Shown: positions 1 to 9,508 of the stretch, one piece after another
Layout: every line of letters begins with the position of its first letter
How positions within the stretch are numbered: position 1 is the first letter of the stretch
Program-made: the position numbers and the translations under genes
Notes under the pieces: generated by a model
The model's database searches: none
What the model saw: the letters and a program-made list of their open reading frames with translations, nothing else
Told to the model about the DNA's origin: nothing
Assembly (NCBI GenBank): GCA_903821255.1
Contig: CAIJKT010000473.1
Coordinates: 1 to 17,327, forward strand
Length of the DNA: 17,327 nt
Direction: 5' to 3'
Origin: an uncultured Lentisphaeria bacterium
GTDB lineage: Bacteria; Verrucomicrobiota; Lentisphaeria; Victivallales; Victivallaceae

Positions 1-300
1 GACATTCCATATTTCCCGAACGTCACAATGGGATGGGATTCCAGTCCGCGCACCATACAAAGCGAAATATGGGAACCCGTCGGCTACCCATATTCAAATA
101 TGATCAGTGATAATACTCCTGAAAACTTCCGACTTGCCCTAGATGAGACCCGTCAGCGCCTCGCCGGACTGGATATTCCGCAGATACTCAACATTAACTG
201 CTGGAACGAGTGGACTGAGGGCAGTTATCTTGAACCGGACAATGTTCATGGAACTGCCTATCTGGATGCAGTGAAATCGGTATTTCTCAGCGAAAATTGA
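1..300 (+). CDS. GH99-like / WbsX-family protein, C-terminal fragment
   Basis: The reading frame is open from base 1 to the TGA at 298-300, so only the last 99 residues are visible and the true start lies left of the window. The segment NCWNEWTEGSYLEPD followed by a HGTAYLDAV-type helix is typical of the C-terminal end of the WbsX / GH99-like domain (PF14307). This TIM-barrel domain occurs in polysaccharide-associated proteins and is related to endo-alpha-mannosidases. The reaction cannot be told from this piece: such proteins may be glycosidases acting on alpha-mannoside-type glycans, or enzymes of surface polysaccharide synthesis. Given the other glycosidases in the window, a degradative role is the better guess. 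The N-terminal part, any signal peptide and the neighbour upstream are not visible. No terminator is evident just after the stop; the next bases run into an antisense gene remnant. Confidence 0.8.
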   Translation, partial: DIPYFPNVTMGWDSSPRTIQSEIWEPVGYPYSNMISDNTPENFRLALDETRQRLAGLDIPQILNINCWNEWTEGSYLEPDNVHGTAYLDAVKSVFLSEN

Positions 301-582
301 AACCCAGGAATTAATTTTTCTATCGTGGTCTATCAAGAATGCCGCTAAGTTAAATAAAATCGGAGTAAGCGTCCAGTCAGCCACATCAAATTGGCCGTGC
401 GCATAATAATCCTGCTTGGCATGTAATGCGATACCTAAGTTTTTAGCCGCTGAGCCAGGATCATCTCCAGGATTTCCTAAATGGGTGAAATCCCCAAATG
501 ACGGTTTAGAAAGTTTGTCACTGCATGCATCCTTTGCGGCATCGGCAAGAACTTGCTTTTTTAGCATATTTTCGTTTTTCAT
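301..582 (-). pseudogene. remnant of an HxxxDxxxH metal-site protein (Zn phospholipase C / Het-C / RHS-tail-like)
   Basis: An antisense frame reads from an ATG at 582 and stays open to 139, so its last ~50 codons lie inside the GH99-like gene on the other strand and are unlikely to be genuine. The first ~90 residues look protein-like. They include THLGNPGDDPGSAAKNLGIALHAKQ and then H-A-K-Q-D-Y-Y-A-H (His54, Asp58, His62), the helix motif of zinc-dependent phospholipase C, Het-C-like proteins and some RHS-associated C-terminal domains. (The quoted stretch is residues 33-57 with the motif following.) The same frame is open upstream of the ATG for 13 codons, up to a TAA at 622-624. There is no convincing ribosome binding site, and base composition is more AT-rich than in the neighbours. 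I read it as the decayed middle of a larger gene that lost both ends. A small real gene is possible but less likely. Confidence 0.4.
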
Positions 583-796
583 CCATTTTTGATGAATAAT
601 CCAGGTTAATGTCTGAAAGTATTAAAACGATAGGAATGCTATCGGAGAATAGATAAAAAAAGAACTTTTTGTTGAACAACTGATTTGTACCATGTGATTT
701 ATGACATTATTTTTATGATAGGTTTTTTAGAGAAAATCCAGTATGCGGTTATTGCTATTATAGAAATTTCATATATTTGAGCAGGAGGGAGAAAAA
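583..796. other. AT-rich spacer upstream of the giant repeat protein, no gene
   Basis: No coding sequence is convincing here. A short hairpin (CGATAG, loop GAATG, CTATCG) lies at 628-644. A strong Shine-Dalgarno sequence, AGGAGGGAG, lies at 783-791, just before the ATG at 797, and it fixes the start of the large gene. No -10/-35 pair with good spacing was found. A TATTAT at 756-761 could be a -10 but lacks a matching -35. Confidence 0.5.
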
Positions 797-3700
797 ATGG
801 CGTTTACTGCAATCGTTTCGACAACCGTTACTGGCGAAATCGTTGTCGGGGGAGGAGTACAGAGTATTGTTAATGGCGGCATTGCGAATTCCACCACCGT
901 TAACTTCGGCGGTGAACAGTATGTTTCCTCCGGCGGCGTGGCGAATTCCACCACCGTCAACTCCCAAGGGTTACAAACTGTTTTAATTGGCGGTACTGTT
1001 AACAATACGCTCCTTTCCGGAGGTCCGCGGTGGGATGGTTGTTGCTATAATGCATATCAATGTGTATATGGAATTGCTGATTCCACCATTATCACCCACC
1101 TCGGATGCCAGACTGTTTATTCTGGTGGAACAGCAAATTATACGACCATCGACTCCGGGTATGATAATTATGATAACAATCAGTATGTATCTTCTGGCGG
1201 TACGGCTAATTACACCACCGTCAATGCCGGTTATCAGCATGTCTCCTCCGGCGGAGTGGCAAACTCCGCCACGATCAATTCCGGCGGCGCGCAGCTTGTA
1301 TCTTCCGGCGGTACGGCTAATTACACCACCGTCAATGGCGGTTATCAGAATATCTCCTCAGGAGGGGTGGCAAATTATACTGCCGTAAACTCTGGCGGTT
1401 ATCAGTATGTTTCCTCCGGCGGTGTGGCGAATTTCACCACCGTCAACTCCGGCGGCTCAATGACAGTCTATGGCGGGGGGAGTGCTATTAGTGTAAATGT
1501 CGCCTCTGGCGGTCTTTTAGGATGGGATTTCAATACTGTCATCAGCGGGACCAGCAATGGAATAGCTTTTAACAATAGCAACGGAAAAAATAGTTATAAC
1601 TTTTCGTTCTTATACGGAGAGCAAAAAGTATCATCCGGTTATGTCGCTAATTTCACTACTTTTAAAGGCACCGGCTATGACAACTGTATTCAGACGGTCT
1701 GTAATGGCGGAGTGGCGAATAGCACAATTTTAAATGACTATTGCAGGCAGTATGTTTCCTCCGGCGGGATTGCGAATTCCACAGTCATTAATGGAATTGG
1801 CTGGTTTTACGGTAGTTTTCAAGAAGTCATGGATGGCGGAGTGGCGAATAACACAATCATTAATGATGCCTGGCAGAAAGTTGAAGGTGTGACGAATTCC
1901 ACCGCCATCAACGGCGGCATTCAATATGTTGAACTCGGCGGCGCTGCGAATTCCACCACTATCAACAACGGTAGTCAGTATGTTTCCTCCGGGGGGATTG
2001 CGAATTCCACAATCATTAATGATGCCAGTCAGCAGGTTTATTATGGAGGAGTGGCGAATTCCACCACTATCAACAACGGCTGGCAGTATGTTGAAGGTGT
2101 GGCGAATTCCACAATCGTTAATGGCGGCGGTCAGTATGGCGGCAGTCAGTATGTCTCATCCGGCGGAGTGGCGAATTCCACAACTATCAACTCCGGCGGC
2201 ACTCAATATGTCGCTTCCGGCGGAACCGTGACGGGGAACTTGACCGAGGCGGGAGGTCACACTATTCTTGAGTCGGCCGATGCGATGCAAGCCGACAGCG
2301 TGGCGTTCCAATGGTTGTCGTCCTACAGCGAAGCCGCCGCTATTTCAATTGATTCCGGTTCGCTGTCCGGCTCCGGCTGTCTGTGGGAACTGGATCTCGA
2401 CAACATCTCCTCCGGCCTGTATGCACTGGTTTCCGGCCCCGACCTGTCCGCATTGAACAACGCAAGCTTTACCGTCAACTATCAAGGACAATCCTGCTCC
2501 GGTCTTGCCGAGGGGACTAATTATACGTTCGCCGACGGGTCCCGCATCACATGGTCCGTCCTTGATTCCGGGCGGGATGACACCATGTTCGCTTCATTCT
2601 CCCATGTGGCGGATGTGGTTCCCGCAGTGGTTTCGGTTGTTGCCACCGACAATTTTGCCTCCGAGTCAGGTGACACCGCGGTTTTCCGCGTCAGCCGCAC
2701 CGGCGACACCAGCGCCGCGCTGAAGGTCTATTTCACCACCTCCGGCATGTCAATCCAAAATCTGGACTACACGCTTTCCGCCGGAACCGAACTCCTGGAC
2801 CATTCGGTAACCATAGCCGCCGGGCAATCGTATGTTGATGTCACGCTGAGCGCCGTCAACGATGCCATGGTCGAATCATCAAGACTGGCCGTACTGGCGT
2901 TGACCGGCAATTCCACCTACGACTTAAATACTTTCTCCAGCCGTTCCGCCGAGGTTACCGTCGCCAGCGACGATGCCGTGCCGGTCTATCAGTTCACGGA
3001 CGGAGTGCCGCTGATCAAATTCCATACCTGGGACCAGGACCGCGGTTACAACAAATATTGCCCGGTCGACCAGGACACCGGGAAACGTGCGTTGACCGGT
3101 TGCGGTCCCACCGCGCTGGGCCAGCTCCTGTATTACTGGCATTACAGCATTGCCGTATCCCCCGATCTGCAATACGTCCTGCCCTATGAGCCGGAAACCT
3201 GTATCGTAGGCGACGACCAGTCGGCTAAAACATGTGGCTTTCTGTCACTTTCCCAGCTCAACACCAAATTGGCCAACCTGAAATTCGACGGGTCGCTCGA
3301 TGAAGCCGCCGCCATGTCGTTCGCCGTCGGAATCGAGATGGAGGCCGCCTTTACCTCCATCTCTACTTCCACATTTTTCGAACAAGCGCTGACGACCGGA
3401 TTCCACTCATGGAACCTGACCGGCGGCAACTACCAGAGTATCATCGATGAACTGCGGGACGGCCGGCCGCTTGTAGCCATTTTGGATTCGGAAGCCGGTG
3501 GGCATGCCGCCCTGATCGACGGCTATCGGCAAGCGGACGACAAATACCATTTCAACCTGGGCTGGGGCGGCAATAACGACGGCTGGTATTCCATGTCGAA
3601 CATCCCCACCTCTATTGGAACTTTCTGCGTCAGCAATTGTATCTCGCTGTATCCGTCGGACCAGGAGCGTGATCTTACCGTCAACAGCAATATCGATTTT

Positions 3701-5914
3701 TCCGTAAGCAATCTGAAGATGCTGGACGGCAATAATAATGTTGTGACCACCTGCAGCGCCGGCGACGTCCCTGCTTCTATTTCCATTGACTGCGGCAGCG
3801 GCGACAGCAGCAACAGTTACGATAGCAAGTTCGCGAAGGTGGAAGTTTTCCTGTCCCGAGATCGCACCATTACCGCAGATGACATCAAGCTTGGCTTCCT
3901 CGCGGGCGATCTCGCTGGCACTCTTAACCTGAGCAACTGCGACTACTTGACTTATAAACTCGTCGTTCCTGAGACCATCGCCGCCGGAAACTATTACCTC
4001 GGCGCGCACCTGGTCACCGCCGGAGATCCGGACGACACCAACAACTGGACGGTTGGCGATGTCATCATCGTTGAAGGCGCACCCGACAAGGTCGCCCCCA
4101 CTGTTCCCGCCAAACTTGCCGCGTCCGTCAACGGGAACGCCGTTACATTCAGTTGGAAGGCATCCACGGATGCGCTCAGCGGAATCAGCCAGTACGAATA
4201 CCAGATTGATGATAATAACGATTTTTCCAGCCTGGCCAAATCCGGAACGGCCGCCGGAACCTCCGTCGACACCTCCGATTTGGCCGCCGGGGCCGCCTAT
4301 TTCTGGCGGGTTCGCGCCCGGGACAATGCCGGCAACTACAGCGCCTGGAGTAAATCAGCTTCATTTTTTGTTGCGCCGGAGGATAACGCGGGGAATACCC
4401 CATTGAATGCGAATGACATTGGCGAACTCCCCGGCGGGGTTGTTGTCGAATGCAATGACTGGGCTGGTTTCGGCGACCCGGCGGACTGCTATAAACTGAA
4501 CATGACTGGCGCCGGAACCCTTGCCTTGAATCTGACCGGGCTCACCGGCGATGCCAACCTTTCGCTGCTGGACGCCAAAAGCAAGGTTCTGAAGACTTCC
4601 GCTAACAAAAAAAATGCAGGAGAAGCAATCTCCATGGCGTTGCCGGCCGGTTATTATTTCGTTAAAGTGACGCCTGCCGACGGGGGCAAGAGCTCAGTCA
4701 ACAACACCACTTACACGTTGAGCAATAAAGTTGATTATTTCCCTGGAGATAACGCCGGCAATGCTCTGGACAAGGCGAATGTCATTGGCGGACTCGCCGA
4801 CGGGGTTGCCGCCGAATGCAGCGACTGGACGGGTTTCGGCGATCCGGCGGACTACTATCAACTGACGCTGACCAATGCCGGGACTTTGAGACTGAATCTG
4901 AATCTGACCGACTTGACCGGGGACGCCAATCTGACGCTGCTGGATAACAAAGGCAAGGTATTGAAGGCTTCTTCCGCAAAAGGGCATATCGATGAAGCGA
5001 TCGTCATGCCTTTGCTTGCCGGTGATTATTTCGTCAAGGTCGCCCCCGCCGACGGCGGCAAAGGCATCATTAACAACACCTGCTATAATCTGAGCAGCAC
5101 GGTTGATTATTTCCCTGAAGATAAAGTCGGCAATACTGCATCCGGGGCTGCCGTCATCGGGGAACTTGCCGACAAGGTTGTTGTCGAACTGCCGGGCTGG
5201 GCTGGTTTCGGCGATCCGGCGGACTACTATCAACTGACGCTGACCACCGCCGGAGCGTTAAGCCTGAACCTGACCGGCTTGAGCGGCGACGCGAACCTTA
5301 CGCTGCTGGATAACAAAGGCAAGGTGCTGAAGACATCCGCTAACAAAAAAAGCGCCGATGAACTAATCGCCACGGCTTTGGCCGCCGGTGATTATCTCGT
5401 AAAAGTCGCTCCCGCCGACGGCGGCAAAAGCACCGTCAACAACACCTACTATAATCTGAGCAGTTATTTCCAAGAGGAAACCGCCGGCAGTTCCTTTGCC
5501 ACCGCCGTCGAACTCGCTTCCGATGGAACGGTTCACGGCTGGGTGGGGTCAGGCAACAAGGAAGACTATTACAAATTTGAAGTGCTGTCGGACGGCTCGA
5601 CTTCAAGCGGCGGGCTGAGCGGATTTGATTCAAATGTCAATCTCTATGTATATAATTCCAAACATAAACTGGTGGCGTCTTCGACCAAATCCGGACTGAC
5701 TCCCGAGTCAATAAACAGCGGTGACGGGAATGCGGACGCGGGTATCTATTATGTAAAGGTAATGCTGGCTGGAACCGGTGCGACTGAATATGATTTGAAT
5801 TTCAATCTTACCCAGCCCGGCGGACTGAGACTGTCCGGCCCGTTGACCGGCAGCGCGGATACCGCGCTGCCCGGCGATCCGCTGAAGAAAAGCAGCGGAC
5901 TGCTGGCAAGTTAA
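797..5914 (+). CDS. giant modular surface/secreted protein: AIDA-type repeats, Calx-beta, C10 cysteine peptidase, CARDB-like, FN3, four PPC domains
   Basis: 1705 residues, with start fixed by AGGAGGGAG 6 bases upstream; the frame closes at a TAG (761-763), so no longer N-terminus exists. Residues ~22-485 hold about 20 strand-loop-strand (AIDA/O_hepto_targRPT-type) repeats of ~19 residues on the theme GGVANSTTVNSGGxQYVSS. Residues ~486-605 are unassigned. Residues ~608-725 form a Calx-beta domain. Residues ~730-950 are a C10 (streptopain) peptidase: TGCGPTALGQLLYYW carries the likely nucleophile Cys769, GHAALIDGY carries His903, and FNLGWGG gives Asn920 and Trp923. Residues ~953-1092 resemble CARDB. 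Residues ~1095-1192 are FN3. PPC domains start near 1196, 1318, 1441 and 1559. No signal peptide, anchor or beta-barrel is seen. Likely an extracellular adhesin-protease, but its export route is unknown. It converges on the AraC gene with 8 bp between stops. Confidence 0.9.
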   Translation: MAFTAIVSTTVTGEIVVGGGVQSIVNGGIANSTTVNFGGEQYVSSGGVANSTTVNSQGLQTVLIGGTVNNTLLSGGPRWDGCCYNAYQCVYGIADSTIITHLGCQTVYSGGTANYTTIDSGYDNYDNNQYVSSGGTANYTTVNAGYQHVSSGGVANSATINSGGAQLVSSGGTANYTTVNGGYQNISSGGVANYTAVNSGGYQYVSSGGVANFTTVNSGGSMTVYGGGSAISVNVASGGLLGWDFNTVISGTSNGIAFNNSNGKNSYNFSFLYGEQKVSSGYVANFTTFKGTGYDNCIQTVCNGGVANSTILNDYCRQYVSSGGIANSTVINGIGWFYGSFQEVMDGGVANNTIINDAWQKVEGVTNSTAINGGIQYVELGGAANSTTINNGSQYVSSGGIANSTIINDASQQVYYGGVANSTTINNGWQYVEGVANSTIVNGGGQYGGSQYVSSGGVANSTTINSGGTQYVASGGTVTGNLTEAGGHTILESADAMQADSVAFQWLSSYSEAAAISIDSGSLSGSGCLWELDLDNISSGLYALVSGPDLSALNNASFTVNYQGQSCSGLAEGTNYTFADGSRITWSVLDSGRDDTMFASFSHVADVVPAVVSVVATDNFASESGDTAVFRVSRTGDTSAALKVYFTTSGMSIQNLDYTLSAGTELLDHSVTIAAGQSYVDVTLSAVNDAMVESSRLAVLALTGNSTYDLNTFSSRSAEVTVASDDAVPVYQFTDGVPLIKFHTWDQDRGYNKYCPVDQDTGKRALTGCGPTALGQLLYYWHYSIAVSPDLQYVLPYEPETCIVGDDQSAKTCGFLSLSQLNTKLANLKFDGSLDEAAAMSFAVGIEMEAAFTSISTSTFFEQALTTGFHSWNLTGGNYQSIIDELRDGRPLVAILDSEAGGHAALIDGYRQADDKYHFNLGWGGNNDGWYSMSNIPTSIGTFCVSNCISLYPSDQERDLTVNSNIDFSVSNLKMLDGNNNVVTTCSAGDVPASISIDCGSGDSSNSYDSKFAKVEVFLSRDRTITADDIKLGFLAGDLAGTLNLSNCDYLTYKLVVPETIAAGNYYLGAHLVTAGDPDDTNNWTVGDVIIVEGAPDKVAPTVPAKLAASVNGNAVTFSWKASTDALSGISQYEYQIDDNNDFSSLAKSGTAAGTSVDTSDLAAGAAYFWRVRARDNAGNYSAWSKSASFFVAPEDNAGNTPLNANDIGELPGGVVVECNDWAGFGDPADCYKLNMTGAGTLALNLTGLTGDANLSLLDAKSKVLKTSANKKNAGEAISMALPAGYYFVKVTPADGGKSSVNNTTYTLSNKVDYFPGDNAGNALDKANVIGGLADGVAAECSDWTGFGDPADYYQLTLTNAGTLRLNLNLTDLTGDANLTLLDNKGKVLKASSAKGHIDEAIVMPLLAGDYFVKVAPADGGKGIINNTCYNLSSTVDYFPEDKVGNTASGAAVIGELADKVVVELPGWAGFGDPADYYQLTLTTAGALSLNLTGLSGDANLTLLDNKGKVLKTSANKKSADELIATALAAGDYLVKVAPADGGKSTVNNTYYNLSSYFQEETAGSSFATAVELASDGTVHGWVGSGNKEDYYKFEVLSDGSTSSGGLSGFDSNVNLYVYNSKHKLVASSTKSGLTPESINSGDGNADAGIYYVKVMLAGTGATEYDLNFNLTQPGGLRLSGPLTGSADTALPGDPLKKSSGLLAS
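860..2250 (+). repeat. array of ~57-bp AIDA-type coding repeats
   Basis: About 20 imperfect units encode the 19-residue strand-loop-strand motif. The DNA core GCGAATTCCACC recurs in many units (for example near 885, 942, 1768, 1947, 1998, 2055, 2101 and 2170), so several units carry an EcoRI GAATTC word at the same codons. Unit length varies (VEGVANST variants are shorter). Two interruptions break the array: a cysteine-rich insert at about 1018-1110 and a non-repeat stretch at about 1495-1640. Such arrays are expected to change copy number by recombination or replication slippage. Confidence 0.85.
4382..5800 (+). repeat. tandem PPC-domain coding repeats (four units, units 2 and 3 recently duplicated)
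   Basis: Four consecutive bacterial pre-peptidase C-terminal (PPC) units start near 4382, 4748, 5117 and 5471. Units 1-3 share GFGDPADxY, LTGDANLxLLD, KGKVLK and VKVAPADGGK-like blocks; the fourth is more diverged. A 43-base stretch is identical between 4832-4874 and 5204-5246, offset by exactly 372 bases (124 codons), which points to recent duplication or gene conversion between units 2 and 3. PPC domains usually sit C-terminal of secreted peptidases and assist secretion or substrate binding. Confidence 0.85.
5849..5871. other. perfect GC-rich hairpin at the 3' end of the giant ORF
   Basis: GGCAGCGCGG, loop ATA, CCGCGCTGCC: 10-bp perfect arms with a 3-base loop, inside the last ~22 codons of the large gene and about 40 bases before its stop. 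No T-run follows, so it is not a classical intrinsic terminator. It could slow polymerase or protect the 3' end of the message, or act on transcripts arriving from the convergent AraC gene. Confidence 0.5.
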
Positions 5915-5922
5915 CCCGGACA

Positions 5923-6792
5923 TTACGACATGGAAGAGAATTCGCGGCGGTAGCGGGCAGGGGGAATGCCGATGACTTTTTTAAATCTGCGGATAAAGTG
6001 GTATTGATCAACATAGCCGAGATTGGCGGCGACTTCGGAGATTTTATTTTTTGAACCGCACAGTAACTCGACGCCGCGCCGCATTTTGACGGTTTCAATA
6101 TAATTTTTCGGAGACATCCCGGTGGTGTCGTGGAATATCCGGCGCAGTTGATTTTCGCTGATATTACAGTATGCGGCCATTTCGCTTACCGTCCACCATT
6201 TGCTGATGTTGTGCTTCAGTTCCCGGATCAGCAACTGTATCCGCGATTCCGTGGCGGGCATCCGCTCCCGCCTGCGGTTTTCATGGTACAACTCGAAAAT
6301 CAGGTTCAGCAGCAGCGAATTGGCTTCCAGTTGCGACGCCAGGGTGGCGCCTTTAAGTTTTTCGATAATCGGGAGCAGGCGGCGGGCGGTTCCGATCTGG
6401 ATCAGGCCGTCCCGCAGCACACCCGCGTTGTACAGCGCGTCGGCCGACGGCCCCATGAACGCAATCGAGTCTTCATAAAAATAGTCTTTATAGCCGGAAT
6501 AACTGTTGGTTTTTCCCGGGGTGGCGATAATGCCCGCGCCCGGAGAAATAATTTCCGGTTTTTCGTGTTCAGGCGTCCAGTAAAAGCCTTTGCCGCCGAT
6601 CAGGTGGGTCAGCACGTAGAAGTTGAATTTTCGCGGTATCGGCGAATCCTTGATGGGACTTTTCACCTTCGAATAGAACGAACAGATCCAGAGTCCTGAG
6701 CGGCACATCTGGTCGCGGATATTCCTTGGAATCGGTTCCACATTTATTTCCGATGTGTTGAATTTGTCATTCATTATGATTGAAAAGTCCAT
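5923..6792 (-). CDS. AraC-family transcriptional regulator
   Basis: 289 residues, the normal AraC/XylS size. The N-terminal ~160 residues look like an AraC-type cupin ligand pocket (FYVLTHLIGGKGFYW, GAGIIATPGKTNSYSG), suggesting a sugar effector. The last ~95 residues hold the two helix-turn-helix units: WTVSEMAAYCNISENQLRRIF first, then ISEVAANLGYVDQYHFIRRFKKVIG with the usual family end IPPARYRREF. The start is uncertain: the ATG at 6792 has no clear Shine-Dalgarno, and an internal ATG at 6774 is also possible. The gene is divergent from the GH20 gene across 83 bp rich in dyads, so the most likely role is sugar-dependent activation of GH20, possibly with autoregulation. Effector and target are inferred from position only. 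Confidence 0.9.
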   Translation of the reverse strand: MDFSIIMNDKFNTSEINVEPIPRNIRDQMCRSGLWICSFYSKVKSPIKDSPIPRKFNFYVLTHLIGGKGFYWTPEHEKPEIISPGAGIIATPGKTNSYSGYKDYFYEDSIAFMGPSADALYNAGVLRDGLIQIGTARRLLPIIEKLKGATLASQLEANSLLLNLIFELYHENRRRERMPATESRIQLLIRELKHNISKWWTVSEMAAYCNISENQLRRIFHDTTGMSPKNYIETVKMRRGVELLCGSKNKISEVAANLGYVDQYHFIRRFKKVIGIPPARYRREFSSMS

Positions 6793-6875
6793 TTGTTTTA
6801 TAAATACTCAAGTATATTAATATATGTATCATACTGGAAATTACTATAATACTTTAAACACGGAGATGTTGAAAA
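6793..6875. promoter_or_regulatory. divergent AraC/GH20 control region with dyads and a TATAAT box
   Basis: TATAAT at 6845-6850 is a perfect -10 for the GH20 gene, but the hexamer 17 bp upstream (ATATGT, 6822-6827) is a poor -35, as expected of an activator-dependent promoter. Just upstream are ATACT-CA-AGTAT (6804-6815), the palindrome TATATTAATATA (6813-6824) and GTAT-C-ATAC (6826-6834). GGAG at 6862-6865 is the GH20 Shine-Dalgarno. The dyads are candidate regulator sites, though AT-rich DNA makes chance palindromes common. Confidence 0.5.
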
Positions 6876-8714
6876 ATGAATATTATACCAATGCCGGCAA
6901 AAATAAAGATAAAAAACGGGACTTGTGCGCTGAATGAGAAAACGTCAATCATTCTTGATCAGGACAAGCCGCTGATTCCGCTGGAAGGTCCGCTGCTGCT
7001 GACAGACACTCTCGCCCAGGCCCTCTGCCGCCGTCCGGTTCTGACGCGTTCGAATAATCCCGGCGGGAATGCGATCTTCCTGACCGTCGCCGGCGCCGGC
7101 GACGCCCAGAGCTATAAAATGACGGTAGAGAAAGACGGCGTGACAATAACCGGCGACGGCCTGCCCGGGCTGTTTTACGGTATCCAGACCCTGCGCCAGA
7201 TGATCGCGGAATATGGCGCTGAACTGCCCTGCTGCACCATCACGGACACCCCGGATTTTCCCGTCCGCGGCTTTTATCATGATACCACCCGCGGCAAAGT
7301 GCCGAAGCTGGAAACGCTGTTTGAGCTGGCGGACAAGATGGCATATTACAAACTTAACCATCTGGAACTGTACGTTGAACATACTTTCGCCTTTGCGGAG
7401 ATGTCCGACGTCTGGGCCGGCAGCGACCCGCTGACCGCCGAGGAGATTCTGCGTCTGGACGAATATTGCAAAAAACGCTGCATTGATCTGGTGCCGTCCT
7501 TAAGCACGTTCGGCCATTGCTATCATTTACTTTGCAGCAAACGCCGGGAGCATTTGAACGAACTGGATATCAAGGCTTCCGAATTGCCTTTCTATTTTTA
7601 CGACCGGATGGCCCACTACACGCTGAACTGTTCCGACGCCGGTTCGTTCAAGCTGGTCGAAGGGATGATCGCGAAATTTTCTCCACTCTTCAGTTCCAAA
7701 TATTTTAATATCTGCTGCGATGAGACATTCGATCTGGGGACCGGCAGGAATGCCGCGAAAGCTAAAAAACACGGCAAAGTGCGCCTTTATCTGGACTTTC
7801 TGGAAAAGATTGTCGGCGCCGTCAGGAAACAGGATAAGATCCCGATGCTGTGGGGCGACGTCGTATTGCATGAACCCGGCCTGATTCCAGAATTCCCGAA
7901 AGGGACCATTGCGCTGAACTGGGATTATTCCGCGAAATGCCAATATCGCCCGTGCGAACCTTTCGCTGAAAATAAAATCCCGTTTTATGTCTGCCCCGGC
8001 GTTCACGGCTGGAATAATTTCTTTAACGACATCAATGCGGCATGTGAAAATATCTGGAATTACGCCGCCGCGGGCAGGAAGAACGGGGCGGCCGGCTTTC
8101 TCAATACAGACTGGGGCGATTACGGTCATGTCAATTTGTTCTTCAATTCCATGCACGGCATGATTTACGGCGCGGCGGTTTCCTGGAACGTTGATGCGGC
8201 GAAAGATACTGCCGCCTTTGATGAAGCGTTCAGTTCGCTGGAGCTGGGAGCTGATTCCGCCGCCGCAGTTGAAATCGCCAGAGCGATTTCGGCGGCAAAT
8301 TCGGTCAACTGGGGCCATGTGGTGCGCTGGTATGAATCCGTCCGCCGCGGCAATCCCGAGGCGGAGGCAATCAAGCAGATCACTGACTGTGCAGACCTGG
8401 GCAAGTTGTCCGCCAGCATCAAAAAAATGGAAAAACTAATTCCGGCGCTTACTTTGAAACTGAATTCCGCTAAAACCGCGCCATTGAATGTGCGGGAACT
8501 TGTTACCGGCGCCAGGGGGGCGCTGCTGATGCACCGGATCGCTCAGAGCGTTTGCCGCAGGGATAAGACTTCGGCGTGGAAAACCGCCGATGAAATAAGG
8601 TTCTTTGAAAAAGATTTGTCCGAAGTCTGGCATTGCCGCAATAAACCGTCCGAGTATTACCGCGTCAAAGAGACGCTATCGGGCATGGCAGTAATTCTGG
8701 ACAGCATTCGCTGA
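6876..8714 (+). CDS. GH20 beta-N-acetylhexosaminidase
   Basis: 612 residues, start supported by GGAG 10 bases upstream. Such enzymes remove terminal beta-linked GlcNAc or GalNAc from glycans by substrate-assisted catalysis. Residues ~1-115 form the GH20 N-terminal zincin-like (GH20b) domain, with GDGLPGLFYGIQTLRQM at its end. The TIM barrel starts at PDFPVRGFYHDTTRGKVP, and FNICCDETFDLG supplies the expected Asp282-Glu283 pair (Glu as acid/base, Asp orienting the acetamido group). GAAGFLNTDWGDYGH and SWN close the barrel near residue 440; a ~170-residue helical C-terminus follows. No signal peptide is present, so it probably acts in the cytoplasm on imported oligosaccharides. The exact substrate is not evident. 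It is controlled most likely by the divergent AraC gene and ends at a strong hairpin. Confidence 0.9.
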   Translation: MNIIPMPAKIKIKNGTCALNEKTSIILDQDKPLIPLEGPLLLTDTLAQALCRRPVLTRSNNPGGNAIFLTVAGAGDAQSYKMTVEKDGVTITGDGLPGLFYGIQTLRQMIAEYGAELPCCTITDTPDFPVRGFYHDTTRGKVPKLETLFELADKMAYYKLNHLELYVEHTFAFAEMSDVWAGSDPLTAEEILRLDEYCKKRCIDLVPSLSTFGHCYHLLCSKRREHLNELDIKASELPFYFYDRMAHYTLNCSDAGSFKLVEGMIAKFSPLFSSKYFNICCDETFDLGTGRNAAKAKKHGKVRLYLDFLEKIVGAVRKQDKIPMLWGDVVLHEPGLIPEFPKGTIALNWDYSAKCQYRPCEPFAENKIPFYVCPGVHGWNNFFNDINAACENIWNYAAAGRKNGAAGFLNTDWGDYGHVNLFFNSMHGMIYGAAVSWNVDAAKDTAAFDEAFSSLELGADSAAAVEIARAISAANSVNWGHVVRWYESVRRGNPEAEAIKQITDCADLGKLSASIKKMEKLIPALTLKLNSAKTAPLNVRELVTGARGALLMHRIAQSVCRRDKTSAWKTADEIRFFEKDLSEVWHCRNKPSEYYRVKETLSGMAVILDSIR

Positions 8715-8720
8715 ACTTTG

Positions 8721-8755
8721 AATCAAAACCACCAGTTGAACTGGTGGTTTTGATT
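8721..8755. terminator. bidirectional intrinsic terminator, perfect 17-bp arms
   Basis: AATCAAAACCACCAGTT and its exact reverse complement flank a single G, giving a 17-bp perfect inverted repeat. The core ACCACCAGTT/AACTGGTGGT is flanked by A-rich and T-rich ends, so both strands present a stem followed by TTTTGATT. It lies between the stops of two convergent genes (GH20 at 8714, SIMPL at 8768), where a shared terminator is expected. Confidence 0.8.
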
Positions 8756-8767
8756 TCGGGAAAGTGA

Positions 8768-9508
8768 TTAATCTTCGAGGATGAAGGATCCGGTAATCGA
8801 TACTGTAATTTTTACTTTGTCGGGTTCAATGGCGGTGTATTTTAAATTGGTATTCGGCATTGTATTGGGATAAAATACTTGTTGCGCCGGGGCTCCGGAA
8901 ATTGAAATTGAAGTCATTTTGCCAACTTTTTTACCGGCAATCGCGGCGAGTTCTTCCGCATTTTTCTTCATGTCGGCCAATGCCAGATCCTTGAGTTCCT
9001 TTTCAAGTTTCGCATACTCTTTCAGTCCGTAAATAACGGCACTGTTAATCTGCCCGCCATAATAGACCTGCGAATCTGCCGAAAGTGTCGCTCCGTTACG
9101 GATGGCGGTATCAATTATTTCGTATACGATTTTGCTATCCGCGGGAAGGGTGATCATGATCTGTTTGCGGATTTCCGGCTGCGGCTTGGCCTGATTATCC
9201 GGATTATAATTATTGGTGCGCTTTTGACCGAGACCAACAACTTTCTGTTCGATTTCTAAATCTTTATATTTCTCTTTAAGGGCATTTTCCAGTTTGGCAT
9301 ATTTCTCCTGGTAGGCCTTTTCCGCATCCACCATCAGGATGCCATCAGCGTTAAGGTAAATAATTATTTTGGCAACATCCGCTTTAACTTCCTTTTCAGC
9401 CTTGCCGGACGCAGAGATTTTGAAGACATCACTTTCCGCCGCGGAAATCATCATTCCGGAACAGAATAACACGGCCAGCAATAACGTCATGGTACTTTTT
9501 CTCAACAT
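8768..9508 (-). CDS. SIMPL (DUF541) domain exported protein
   Basis: 246 residues with a Sec signal peptide (MLRKSTMTLLLAVLFCSGMM, cleavage after about residue 23 at ISA-AES). The start is supported by AGGAGGAG 6 bases upstream. The mature part fits the SIMPL/DUF541 family: an opening FKISASGKAEKEVKADVAKI strand, a helical LENALKEKYKDLEIEQ region, TLPADSKIVYEIIDTAIRNGA, then GLKEYAKLEKELKDLALADMKKNAEELAAIAG and a closing KVKITVSITGSF strand. Homologues are periplasmic or surface proteins linked to oxidative stress or with no known role; the biochemical function is not established. It appears to be a single-gene unit with its own candidate promoter, ending at the shared terminator. Nothing around it indicates a specific partner. 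Confidence 0.9.
   Translation of the reverse strand: MLRKSTMTLLLAVLFCSGMMISAAESDVFKISASGKAEKEVKADVAKIIIYLNADGILMVDAEKAYQEKYAKLENALKEKYKDLEIEQKVVGLGQKRTNNYNPDNQAKPQPEIRKQIMITLPADSKIVYEIIDTAIRNGATLSADSQVYYGGQINSAVIYGLKEYAKLEKELKDLALADMKKNAEELAAIAGKKVGKMTSISISGAPAQQVFYPNTMPNTNLKYTAIEPDKVKITVSITGSFILED

What the first reader, a model, noticed from the sequence alone, without database searches (positions are those of the whole stretch)
797..5914. 1705-residue AIDA-repeat / C10-protease / PPC protein with no visible export signal
The domains are all extracellular types, yet the first residues (MAFTAIVSTTVTGEIVVGGG) are not a signal peptide. An in-frame stop at 761-763 excludes a longer start, and the strong Shine-Dalgarno fixes the ATG. 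There is also no C-terminal autotransporter barrel, LPXTG, PEP-CTERM or RTX-type tail. Either the protein leaves by a route that uses an unrecognised signal (type I-like C-terminal or an N-terminal repeat signal), or the barrel is supplied in trans. The short C-terminal tail after the fourth PPC (last ~25 residues) is a candidate signal.
Basis: partly seen in the sequence, partly recalled or inferred. Interest (0 to 1): 0.75.

Follow-up and report, generated by a model that had tools for sequence, protein, structure and literature searches.

The report
Type-I-exported, AIDA-repeat cysteine protease with C-tail
A giant surface-type protein that looks like half of a classic bacterial autotransporter, but with neither its entry signal nor its exit barrel, most likely leaves the cell through a one-step hemolysin-type pump that recognises a short tail at its end, as its relatives in this poorly studied group of bacteria appear to do.

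Summary
In detail: a 1705-residue ORF with a fixed start, AIDA repeats, an intact-looking C10 protease domain, a fibronectin-type domain, four PPC domains, no signal peptide and no barrel. Relatives suggest why. The final residues (...DPLKKSSGLLAS) form a near-invariant tail: 30 of 33 Victivallaceae-type homologues end G[LMIV]LA[SG] whatever their N-terminal architecture, and none of 32 scanned looks Sec-targeted. In two related genomes a tail-bearing AIDA protein, and in a third the end of a cut-off tail protein, lies directly upstream of a HlyB/HlyD-type exporter; in a separate locus an AIDA protein ending SGLLAG follows HlyD. None of 78 family genomes has the PF03797 autotransporter barrel, 63 have the type I adaptor, and 42 have the autotransporter O-heptosyltransferase, twice encoded right after HlyD. 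The exporter's C39 domain lacks its catalytic cysteine, as in HlyB, so an uncleaved C-terminal signal fits. Best reading: a type-I-secreted, probably O-heptosylated AIDA/C10 protein whose last ~30 residues carry the signal. No secretion was measured, and the window's own genome was not available. New variant of a known kind.

The parts
761..763 (+). in-frame TAG upstream of the start
783..788 (+). Shine-Dalgarno AGGAGG, 8 bases before the ATG
   Evidence: reading of the sequence
797..5914 (+). CDS of the 1705-aa AIDA / C10 / fn3-Ig / PPC x4 protein, no signal peptide
797..2260 (+). AIDA / O_hepto_targRPT strand-loop-strand repeats (about residues 1-488)
   Evidence: PF16168 8 stretches, TIGR04415 11 stretches; limits approximate
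2627..2980 (+). probable Calx-beta-like domain (about residues 611-728)
   Evidence: inference: several homologues carry PF03160; P0001 itself has no significant hit there
3029..3589 (+). Peptidase_C10 domain (residues 745-931); Cys769 in TGCGPTA and His903 in GGHAALIDG
   Evidence: E 1.7e-24; residues located; their catalytic role is from recalled knowledge of the family
4109..4372 (+). fibronectin-III / Rha78A-type Ig domain (residues 1105-1192)
4382..5815 (+). four PPC domains (starting about residues 1196, 1318, 1442, 1555)
   Evidence: PF04151 4 stretches; limits from motifs located
5816..5911 (+). C-terminal tail, residues 1674-1705, ending DPLKKSSGLLAS: proposed uncleaved type I secretion signal
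   Evidence: conserved end in 30 of 33 Victivallaceae-type homologues and, in looser form, in 24 of 25 PPC-bearing ORFs from loci of three genomes; unstructured in the model of homologue P0014

Best explanation
The protein is a Sec-independent substrate of a HlyB/HlyD/TolC-type (type I) exporter. Its N-terminal AIDA repeats form a beta-solenoid from near the first residue and are probably O-heptosylated before export by a TibC/Aah-type heptosyltransferase encoded elsewhere. The exporter then recognises an uncleaved C-terminal signal in the last ~30 residues, closed by the conserved G-[LMI]-L-A-[SG] end, and moves the chain in one step through both membranes. Outside, it acts as an adhesive, protease-bearing surface or secreted protein (C10 cysteine protease on an AIDA stalk, with PPC domains). 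Shown: the anatomy, the conserved tail, gene linkage in relatives, absence of the PF03797 barrel in the family's held genomes. Inferred: export route, signal role of the tail, heptosylation, protease activity.
For: (1) Tail: 30 of 33 Victivallaceae-type hits end G[LMIV]LA[SG] (of the other 3, two appear cut off and one runs 6 residues on); of 27 PPC-bearing ORFs in 28 loci of three relatives, 2 were cut at the 3' end and 24 of the other 25 end [GN]xL[AV][SG]; the 5-mer G[LMIV]LA[SG] occurs internally once in 70,713 residues. (2) No Sec-like N-terminus in 32 family proteins (hydropathy at most 1.8 against 2.56-2.77 for four window Sec proteins) or in 18 AIDA ORFs of other family genomes (at most 1.83). 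(3) Linkage: AIDA-tail protein, ~97-aa ORF, ABC, HlyD in G001 and G002; the same order in G003, where only the last 290 residues of the tail protein are on the contig; AIDA/CARDB protein ending SGLLAG 88 bases after HlyD in G032. (4) Heptosyltransferase TIGR04414 directly after HlyD in G062 (gap -3) and G030 (39) and, as a below-cut-off fragment at a contig end, before the AIDA gene of the G001 exporter locus. (5) PF03797 in 0 of 78 genomes; over cut-off: TIGR01843 in 63, TIGR04414 in 42, AIDA in 44. (6) Exporter closest to HlyB among solved structures; C39 Cys site is S/T in 53 of 53. (7) Published C-terminal [FLI][VAI] bias of RTX-type substrates (PMC8861453): 7 of 18 AIDA ORFs against 24 of 632 others. 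(8) TolC-type OEP in 8 of 8 genomes tested.
Against: No secretion data. The window's genome is not held, so its own exporter and heptosyltransferase are unseen. I found a neighbour with a tail of this kind at only 5 of 69 HlyD loci (many loci are cut by contig ends), three of them one orthologous locus. Only 2 of 62 TIGR04414 hits over cut-off lie right after HlyD, and in 20 heptosyltransferase regions my AIDA model marked an AIDA ORF in 4. P0001 has 22 cysteines and no RTX repeats, while a review ties exporters with C39-like domains to RTX cargo (PMC8277102, passages). P0001's own end (..LAS) does not fit [FLI][VAI] at the last two positions. Exporter scores 630.6 on TIGR01846, below its cut-off 725.55. 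One PPC-bearing ORF (L118) lacks the tail. The heptosyltransferase-HlyD co-occurrence (39/3/24/12, Fisher one-sided p 0.004) ignores kinship and genome incompleteness. The bare end is not enriched genome-wide (29 hits against 50 for the control).
Confidence: 0.78

Rival explanations
1. Type I export, but the signal lies elsewhere (for instance in the PPC domains or an N-terminal leader), and the conserved tail serves surface retention, stability or a chaperone.
For: In G001 the 9 pattern hits that close a long or open frame are all ends of the PPC family, so there the tail was seen only behind such domains; type I signals can extend further than 30 residues (recalled).
Against: Tail-like ends occur on exporter-adjacent proteins in which Pfam finds no PPC (L274 AIDA/CARDB, L221); N-termini differ between members; the exporter's C39 domain lacks the Cys needed for leader cleavage.
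Confidence: 0.12
2. Two-partner or barrel-in-trans (type V-like) export.
For: AIDA repeats and the O-heptosyltransferase belong to type V systems in E. coli (PMC4358343, abstract start in a listing and passages).
Against: PF03797 in 0 of 78 genomes with two controls ringing; no Sec signal to reach the periplasm. PF03865 in 0 of 8 genomes, but its controls were silent, so this is inconclusive.
Confidence: 0.03
3. Type IX secretion: precomputed Pfam labels many homologues with PF18962 (T9SS tail).
For: PF18962 on many homologues; TIGR04183 at 27.8 bits, over its cut-off of 23, in the AIDA protein of the G001 exporter locus.
Against: That match lies at 527-578 of 855 residues, not at the C-terminus, and no single stretch passed on its own; it is probably PPC-like sequence (inference). 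P0001 itself has no such hit. T9SS cargo needs a Sec signal (recalled). SprA over cut-off in 0 of 78 genomes, though no control rang.
Confidence: 0.02
4. The protein is not exported and works in the cytoplasm, or is a decaying gene.
For: No recognised signal by the scan used.
Against: All recognised domains are extracellular types (recalled); many relatives in several genomes; frame open over 5118 bases with an intact-looking active site; linkage of relatives to exporter genes.
Confidence: 0.05

Closest known systems
AIDA-I / TibA / Ag43 self-associating autotransporters (type Va) with Aah/TibC heptosyltransferases
   Same: Same strand-loop-strand repeats (TIGR04415 225.5 bits); relatives encode the same heptosyltransferase family (TIGR04414 600.6 and 578.7 bits), directly upstream of an AIDA gene in G002, G003 and G015.
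   Different: No Sec signal, no C-terminal barrel, and no PF03797 barrel in any of 78 family genomes; in two genomes the heptosyltransferase follows HlyD instead.
HlyA-HlyB-HlyD-TolC type I secretion
   Same: Relatives have an HlyB-like ABC with a cysteine-less C39 domain, an HlyD adaptor and a TolC-type protein; substrates without signal peptide and with a conserved C-terminal end.
   Different: Substrates carry AIDA and PPC modules and P0001 has no RTX repeats; the ABC has two tandem C39-like domains (hhalign E 8.4e-11); HlyB model score below cut-off.
Peptidase C10 (streptopain/interpain) family
   Same: PF01640 87.6 bits with Cys769 and His903 in motifs of the expected kind.
   Different: Known members are Sec-exported with a propeptide (recalled); here the domain sits between an AIDA stalk and PPC domains with no Sec signal.

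Membership tests
Type I secretion substrate | No N-terminal Sec signal | tested here: met
   (hydropathy scan; SignalP not available); N-terminus folds from near the first residue in the model of homologue P0014
Type I secretion substrate | Uncleaved C-terminal signal | tested here: inconclusive
   conserved C-terminal tail, unstructured in a homologue's model; function not tested
Type I secretion substrate | Encoded with, or in a genome with, ABC + HlyD + TolC | tested here: inconclusive
   met in relatives G001-G003; the window's genome is not held and the window has no exporter gene
Type I secretion substrate | RTX nonapeptide repeats (typical, not universal) | tested here: not met
   no GGxGxD, no Pfam RTX hit
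Classical (type Va) autotransporter | Sec signal peptide | tested here: not met
Classical (type Va) autotransporter | C-terminal PF03797 barrel | tested here: not met
   0 of 78 family genomes
O-heptosylated AIDA-repeat proteins | TIGR04415 repeats | tested here: met
   225.5 bits, cut-off 30
O-heptosylated AIDA-repeat proteins | Cognate Aah/TibC heptosyltransferase | not testable with these tools
   none seen in the window; in 42 of 78 family genomes over cut-off
HlyB subfamily (exporter of relatives) | TIGR01846 over curated cut-off | tested here: not met
   630.6 and 640.6 bits against 725.55
HlyB subfamily (exporter of relatives) | C39-like domain without catalytic Cys | tested here: met
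   S/T at the site in 53 of 53 aligned; the site was assigned from the start points of the alignments with recalled numbering of HlyB and PCAT1
Peptidase C10 | PF01640 domain with Cys/His dyad | tested here: met
   (dyad by motif, recalled); activity not tested
Type IX cargo | C-terminal sorting domain at the very end and T9SS machinery | tested here: inconclusive
   no T9SS domain hit in P0001; SprA 0 of 78 over cut-off but controls silent

The most novel reading that the evidence does not exclude
A whole branch of bacteria (Victivallaceae and kin) has moved the AIDA adhesin repertoire, together with its O-heptosyltransferase, from type V to type I secretion, served by exporters with two tandem C39-like domains that read a short C-terminal G-x-L-A-[SG] signal shared by many otherwise different giant cargos. 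That would mean a glycosylated beta-solenoid protein is threaded through a type I channel.
Probability: 0.5. Interest if true: 0.8.

Novelty: new variant of a known kind. Interest (0 to 1): 0.62.

Why it matters
It gives an export route to a large set of surface proteins in a little-studied group that signal-peptide predictors would be expected to miss, loosens the assumed tie between AIDA repeats/heptosyltransferases and type V secretion, and supplies a short, testable C-terminal signal. It also poses a clear problem: TibC-type enzymes are reported to bind a TibA beta-helix (PMC4358343, passages), while type I export is thought to need unfolded cargo (recalled).

Tried and rejected
Signal peptide lost by frameshift: not supported; none of the 32 family proteins scanned has a Sec-like N-terminus (P0027 was left out because it starts mid-protein, and a few predicted starts, such as P0022 and P0032, may not be the true ones). 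P0006 has an earlier in-frame ATG, also without a signal.

Searching the G001 genome for the bare C-terminal motif as a DNA pattern: 29 hits against 50 for the reversed control, so the 5-residue end alone is not enriched; 9 of the 29 close a long or contig-open frame, and those 9 are tail proteins (the pattern also let TGG through). The end means something only in the setting of these proteins.

RTX repeats in other AIDA proteins: two short stretches seen by eye (L330, L349); Pfam gave no RTX hit for either and a regex found two matches in one ORF (L317). Not used.

The 54-protein set was partly picked by the motif, so its 42 of 54 is not used as evidence; searches are. The 17 of 18 against 41 of 632 class was defined after seeing the ends; only the published pattern (7 of 18 against 24 of 632) is weighed, the AIDA proteins are related to each other, and AIDA ORFs dropped by an overlap filter were not counted. 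The ORF sets contain spurious ORFs, 22 of 1480 ORFs ended G-x-[LMIF]-[AV]-[SGA]?, two of these by chance as far as I can see (the L210 ABC gene and a spurious ORF in L264).

PMC4452313 (passages) describes another HlyD-rich gene module in PVC bacteria, with SecA_DEAD and M50 proteins; not this one. PMC2887384, listed with both Victivallis and type I secretion, was not opened; its listing concerns small peptide precursors.

Structure prediction of P0001 itself was not tried (over the length limit); homologue P0014 was used with 12 rows (mean pLDDT 73, pTM 0.35).

Full report
WHAT IS THERE. The frame 797-5914 (+) encodes 1705 residues. The start is fixed by an in-frame TAG at 761-763 and by AGGAGG at 783-788, eight bases before the ATG. 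Pfam finds AIDA repeats (8 stretches), a Peptidase_C10 domain at 745-931 (E 1.7e-24), an fn3/Rha78A-Ig domain at 1105-1192 and four PPC stretches. NCBIfam calls the repeats O_hepto_targRPT, a strand-loop-strand repeat, at 225.5 bits. The C10 motifs hold Cys769 and His903. After the last PPC, 32 residues remain: PGGLRLSGPLTGSADTALPGDPLKKSSGLLAS.

NO SEC SIGNAL. The best 10-residue hydropathy in the first 35 residues is 1.64. Four proteins of the same window whose N-termini look like classical signals score 2.56-2.77, so the organism uses Sec signals elsewhere. The 32 family proteins scanned (P0001 included) score at most 1.8. In the AlphaFold2 model of homologue P0014 (993 aa, 12-row alignment), the ten-residue blocks from 1 to 110 have mean pLDDT 82-94 and are beta strands from about residue 6; residues 959-993, the tail, are under 50 (block means about 30) with no structure. 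The model is of middling quality (mean pLDDT 73, pTM 0.35), and low pLDDT with a shallow alignment is weak evidence of disorder.

THE TAIL IS THE SHARED ELEMENT. A search with residues 1460-1705 gave 43 proteins. I count 33 as Victivallaceae-type (P0001-P0030, P0032, P0034, P0036, by sequence; only some bear that name). They start in at least three different ways: MAFTxIVSSQTVTGE before AIDA repeats, MNLKNLQLNGMELLDP, and MANNILK or MLKKKNIIS. Yet 30 of 33 end G[LMIV]LA[SG]; of the other three, P0020 and P0036 appear cut off and P0026 runs six residues beyond. The 10 other hits of the 43 do not have it. The query itself contained the tail, which may favour such hits. Independently, I took 28 loci of three held relatives (G001-G003): they hold 27 different PPC-bearing ORFs, 2 are cut at the 3' end, and 24 of the other 25 end [GN]xL[AV][SG]; the exception is L118. 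Two classes of last domain (one leading to ...DPLKKxxGLLAS, one to ...KLDFSKKDxxxGMLAS) share little but this end and often a KK before it. The 5-mer occurs inside the 54 proteins once in 70,713 residues. As a bare DNA pattern it is not enriched in the G001 genome (29 hits against 50 for the control).

LINK TO A TYPE I EXPORTER. The closest held genome, G001 (record CAIPAT01, uncultured Lentisphaeria; L001 matches query residues 1-984, 79% identity in the best segment), has two HlyD genes over the family cut-off. At C336 the order on one strand is AIDA/PPC protein (855 aa, ending DDPLKKSPNMLAS), a 97-aa ORF, an HlyB-like ABC of 855 aa, then HlyD. The fragment of a heptosyltransferase lies just upstream at the contig end (110.5 bits, below cut-off). 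G002 has the same order, its AIDA protein ending GMLVS; in G003 the contig begins inside the tail protein, of which the last 290 residues (PPC, ending SGMLAS) are seen before the small ORF, ABC and HlyD. These three look orthologous and count as one case. Two further loci look separate: in G032 a 906-residue AIDA/CARDB protein 88 bases after HlyD ends KVNSGLLAG, and in G033 a 2035-residue protein before the ABC ends KKSNGTLA. I fetched up to 9.2 kb on each side of all 69 HlyD hits over cut-off, from 63 genomes, many cut short by contig ends. I found a neighbour of this sort at 5 of 69; at the others I found none, so most substrates would be encoded away from the exporter, as in the window.

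THE HEPTOSYLTRANSFERASE COMES ALONG. TIGR04414 is over cut-off in 42 of 78 family genomes and in 0 of 14 controls (E. coli rings below it). It lies directly upstream of AIDA proteins in G002, G003 and G015 and directly after HlyD in G062 (gap -3) and G030 (39 bases); that is 2 of 62 hits over cut-off. In 20 heptosyltransferase regions of other genomes my AIDA model marked an AIDA ORF in 4. Presence of TIGR04414 and of HlyD go together (39 both, 3 only the enzyme, 24 only HlyD, 12 neither; Fisher one-sided p 0.004, not corrected for kinship). AIDA repeats are over cut-off in 44 of 78. The autotransporter barrel PF03797 is in 0 of 78, with E. coli and Caulobacter ringing as controls. So the family keeps the passenger repeats and their modifying enzyme but, as far as PF03797 shows, not the type V barrel. 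That such heptosylation happens in the cytoplasm is recalled, not taken from a call.

THE EXPORTER. The ABC matches HlyB best among solved structures (residues 148-850, E about 1e-144). Its score on the HlyB model, 630.6, is below the curated cut-off of 725.55, so I do not file it as HlyB. Its C39-like domain has Ser or Thr at the catalytic Cys position in 53 of 53 aligned sequences. A review (PMC8277102, passages) says that exporters with such domains carry large cargos with a C-terminal signal that is not cleaved; it also ties them to RTX cargos, which P0001 is not. In front lies a second domain of about 140 residues, present in 52 of the 53, which a profile comparison relates to the first (hhalign E 8.4e-11, probability 97): a tandem C39-like arrangement. 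A protein search with residues 1-290 found 17 proteins at E up to 1e-5. TolC-type OEP proteins occur in G001 and in 7 of 7 further genomes tested; in G032 one lies directly after a HlyD gene.

AIDA PROTEINS ELSEWHERE IN THE FAMILY. In 20 regions chosen from other family genomes by AIDA hits, 19 ORFs have at least three repeats by my model; the 18 with a 5' end score at most 1.83 in hydropathy, taking the first possible start. Of the 15 with a 3' end most finish in a short hydrophobic stretch (FSALA, FDIIA, SGKLAG, IATVS and the like; L340 does not). T1SEstacker reports [FLI][VAI] at the last two positions of RTX proteins (PMC8861453, abstract and section 17). Of 18 AIDA ORFs with a 3' end counted, 7 fit this, against 24 of 632 other ORFs (Fisher p 6e-6; related proteins, and the others include spurious ORFs). 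P0001's own last two residues, AS, do not fit it.

HOW IT MOST LIKELY WORKS. Shown: anatomy, no Sec-like N-terminus and no barrel, a conserved terminal tail, and in relatives gene linkage of such proteins and of the heptosyltransferase to a HlyB/HlyD-type exporter. Inferred: that the tail is the signal, that the exporter of the window's own species carries this protein, that the repeats are heptosylated before export, and that the C10 domain is active outside. The chief counter-points are the 22 cysteines of P0001, the absence of RTX repeats, the small number of linked loci, and that nothing was measured.

KNOWN OR NEW. Type I secretion, AIDA repeats, BAHT heptosyltransferases and C10 proteases are all known. 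I found no paper joining AIDA/heptosylated proteins to type I secretion, or describing it in this group, in the searches (open-licence full texts only; apart from the four papers named in this report, the hits were seen as listings, and one search listed 8 of 67). The BAHT paper (PMC4358343) mentions neither Lentisphaerae nor Victivallis nor type I secretion in its main text (term search). I rate it a new variant of a known kind.

On rechecking I corrected the G003 locus (only the end of the tail protein is seen), the counts (19 and 18, not 18 and 17), the wording of the 79% identity, and added the cut-off of TIGR04183, the 2 of 62 and 4 of 20 counts and the RTX remark of the review.

Noticed in passing
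L044:13010-15577 (-) and 51 other family ABC genes: In 52 of 53 aligned type I ABC exporters a second C39-like domain of about 140 residues precedes the usual one. The catalytic site was counted for the usual (second) domain only.
   Followed up: partly
L044:15602-15895 (-); L212:6217-6510; L219:13111-13461 and 8 more loci: A conserved small protein of about 82-129 residues (core like ELIMTPQGFLRAFxAMExLVxQLxxAGVV, consensus by eye) in 11 of the loci fetched around HlyD; the L044 copy matches no Pfam or NCBIfam family.
   Followed up: partly
L226, L227, L228, L232, L262, L266, L221: Large proteins starting like MKxLEFFKLEDRVLFEAAAAxE a few genes after HlyD, with other ends such as LLEELVQA; perhaps another class of type I cargo.
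   Followed up: no
L001:211-5718 and 5858-9232: Two tail-bearing AIDA proteins in tandem in a relative, neither with a visible signal peptide.
   Followed up: no
L118:3073-6231 (-): The one PPC-bearing ORF without the tail; it ends SLNNLLGANGVAYNIS.
   Followed up: no
window 139-582 (-): A 147-aa minus-strand ORF overlapping the end of the partial gene at 1-300, with a stretch GNPGDDPGSAAKNLGIALHAKQDYYAHGQF that looks like a protein domain remnant.
   Followed up: no
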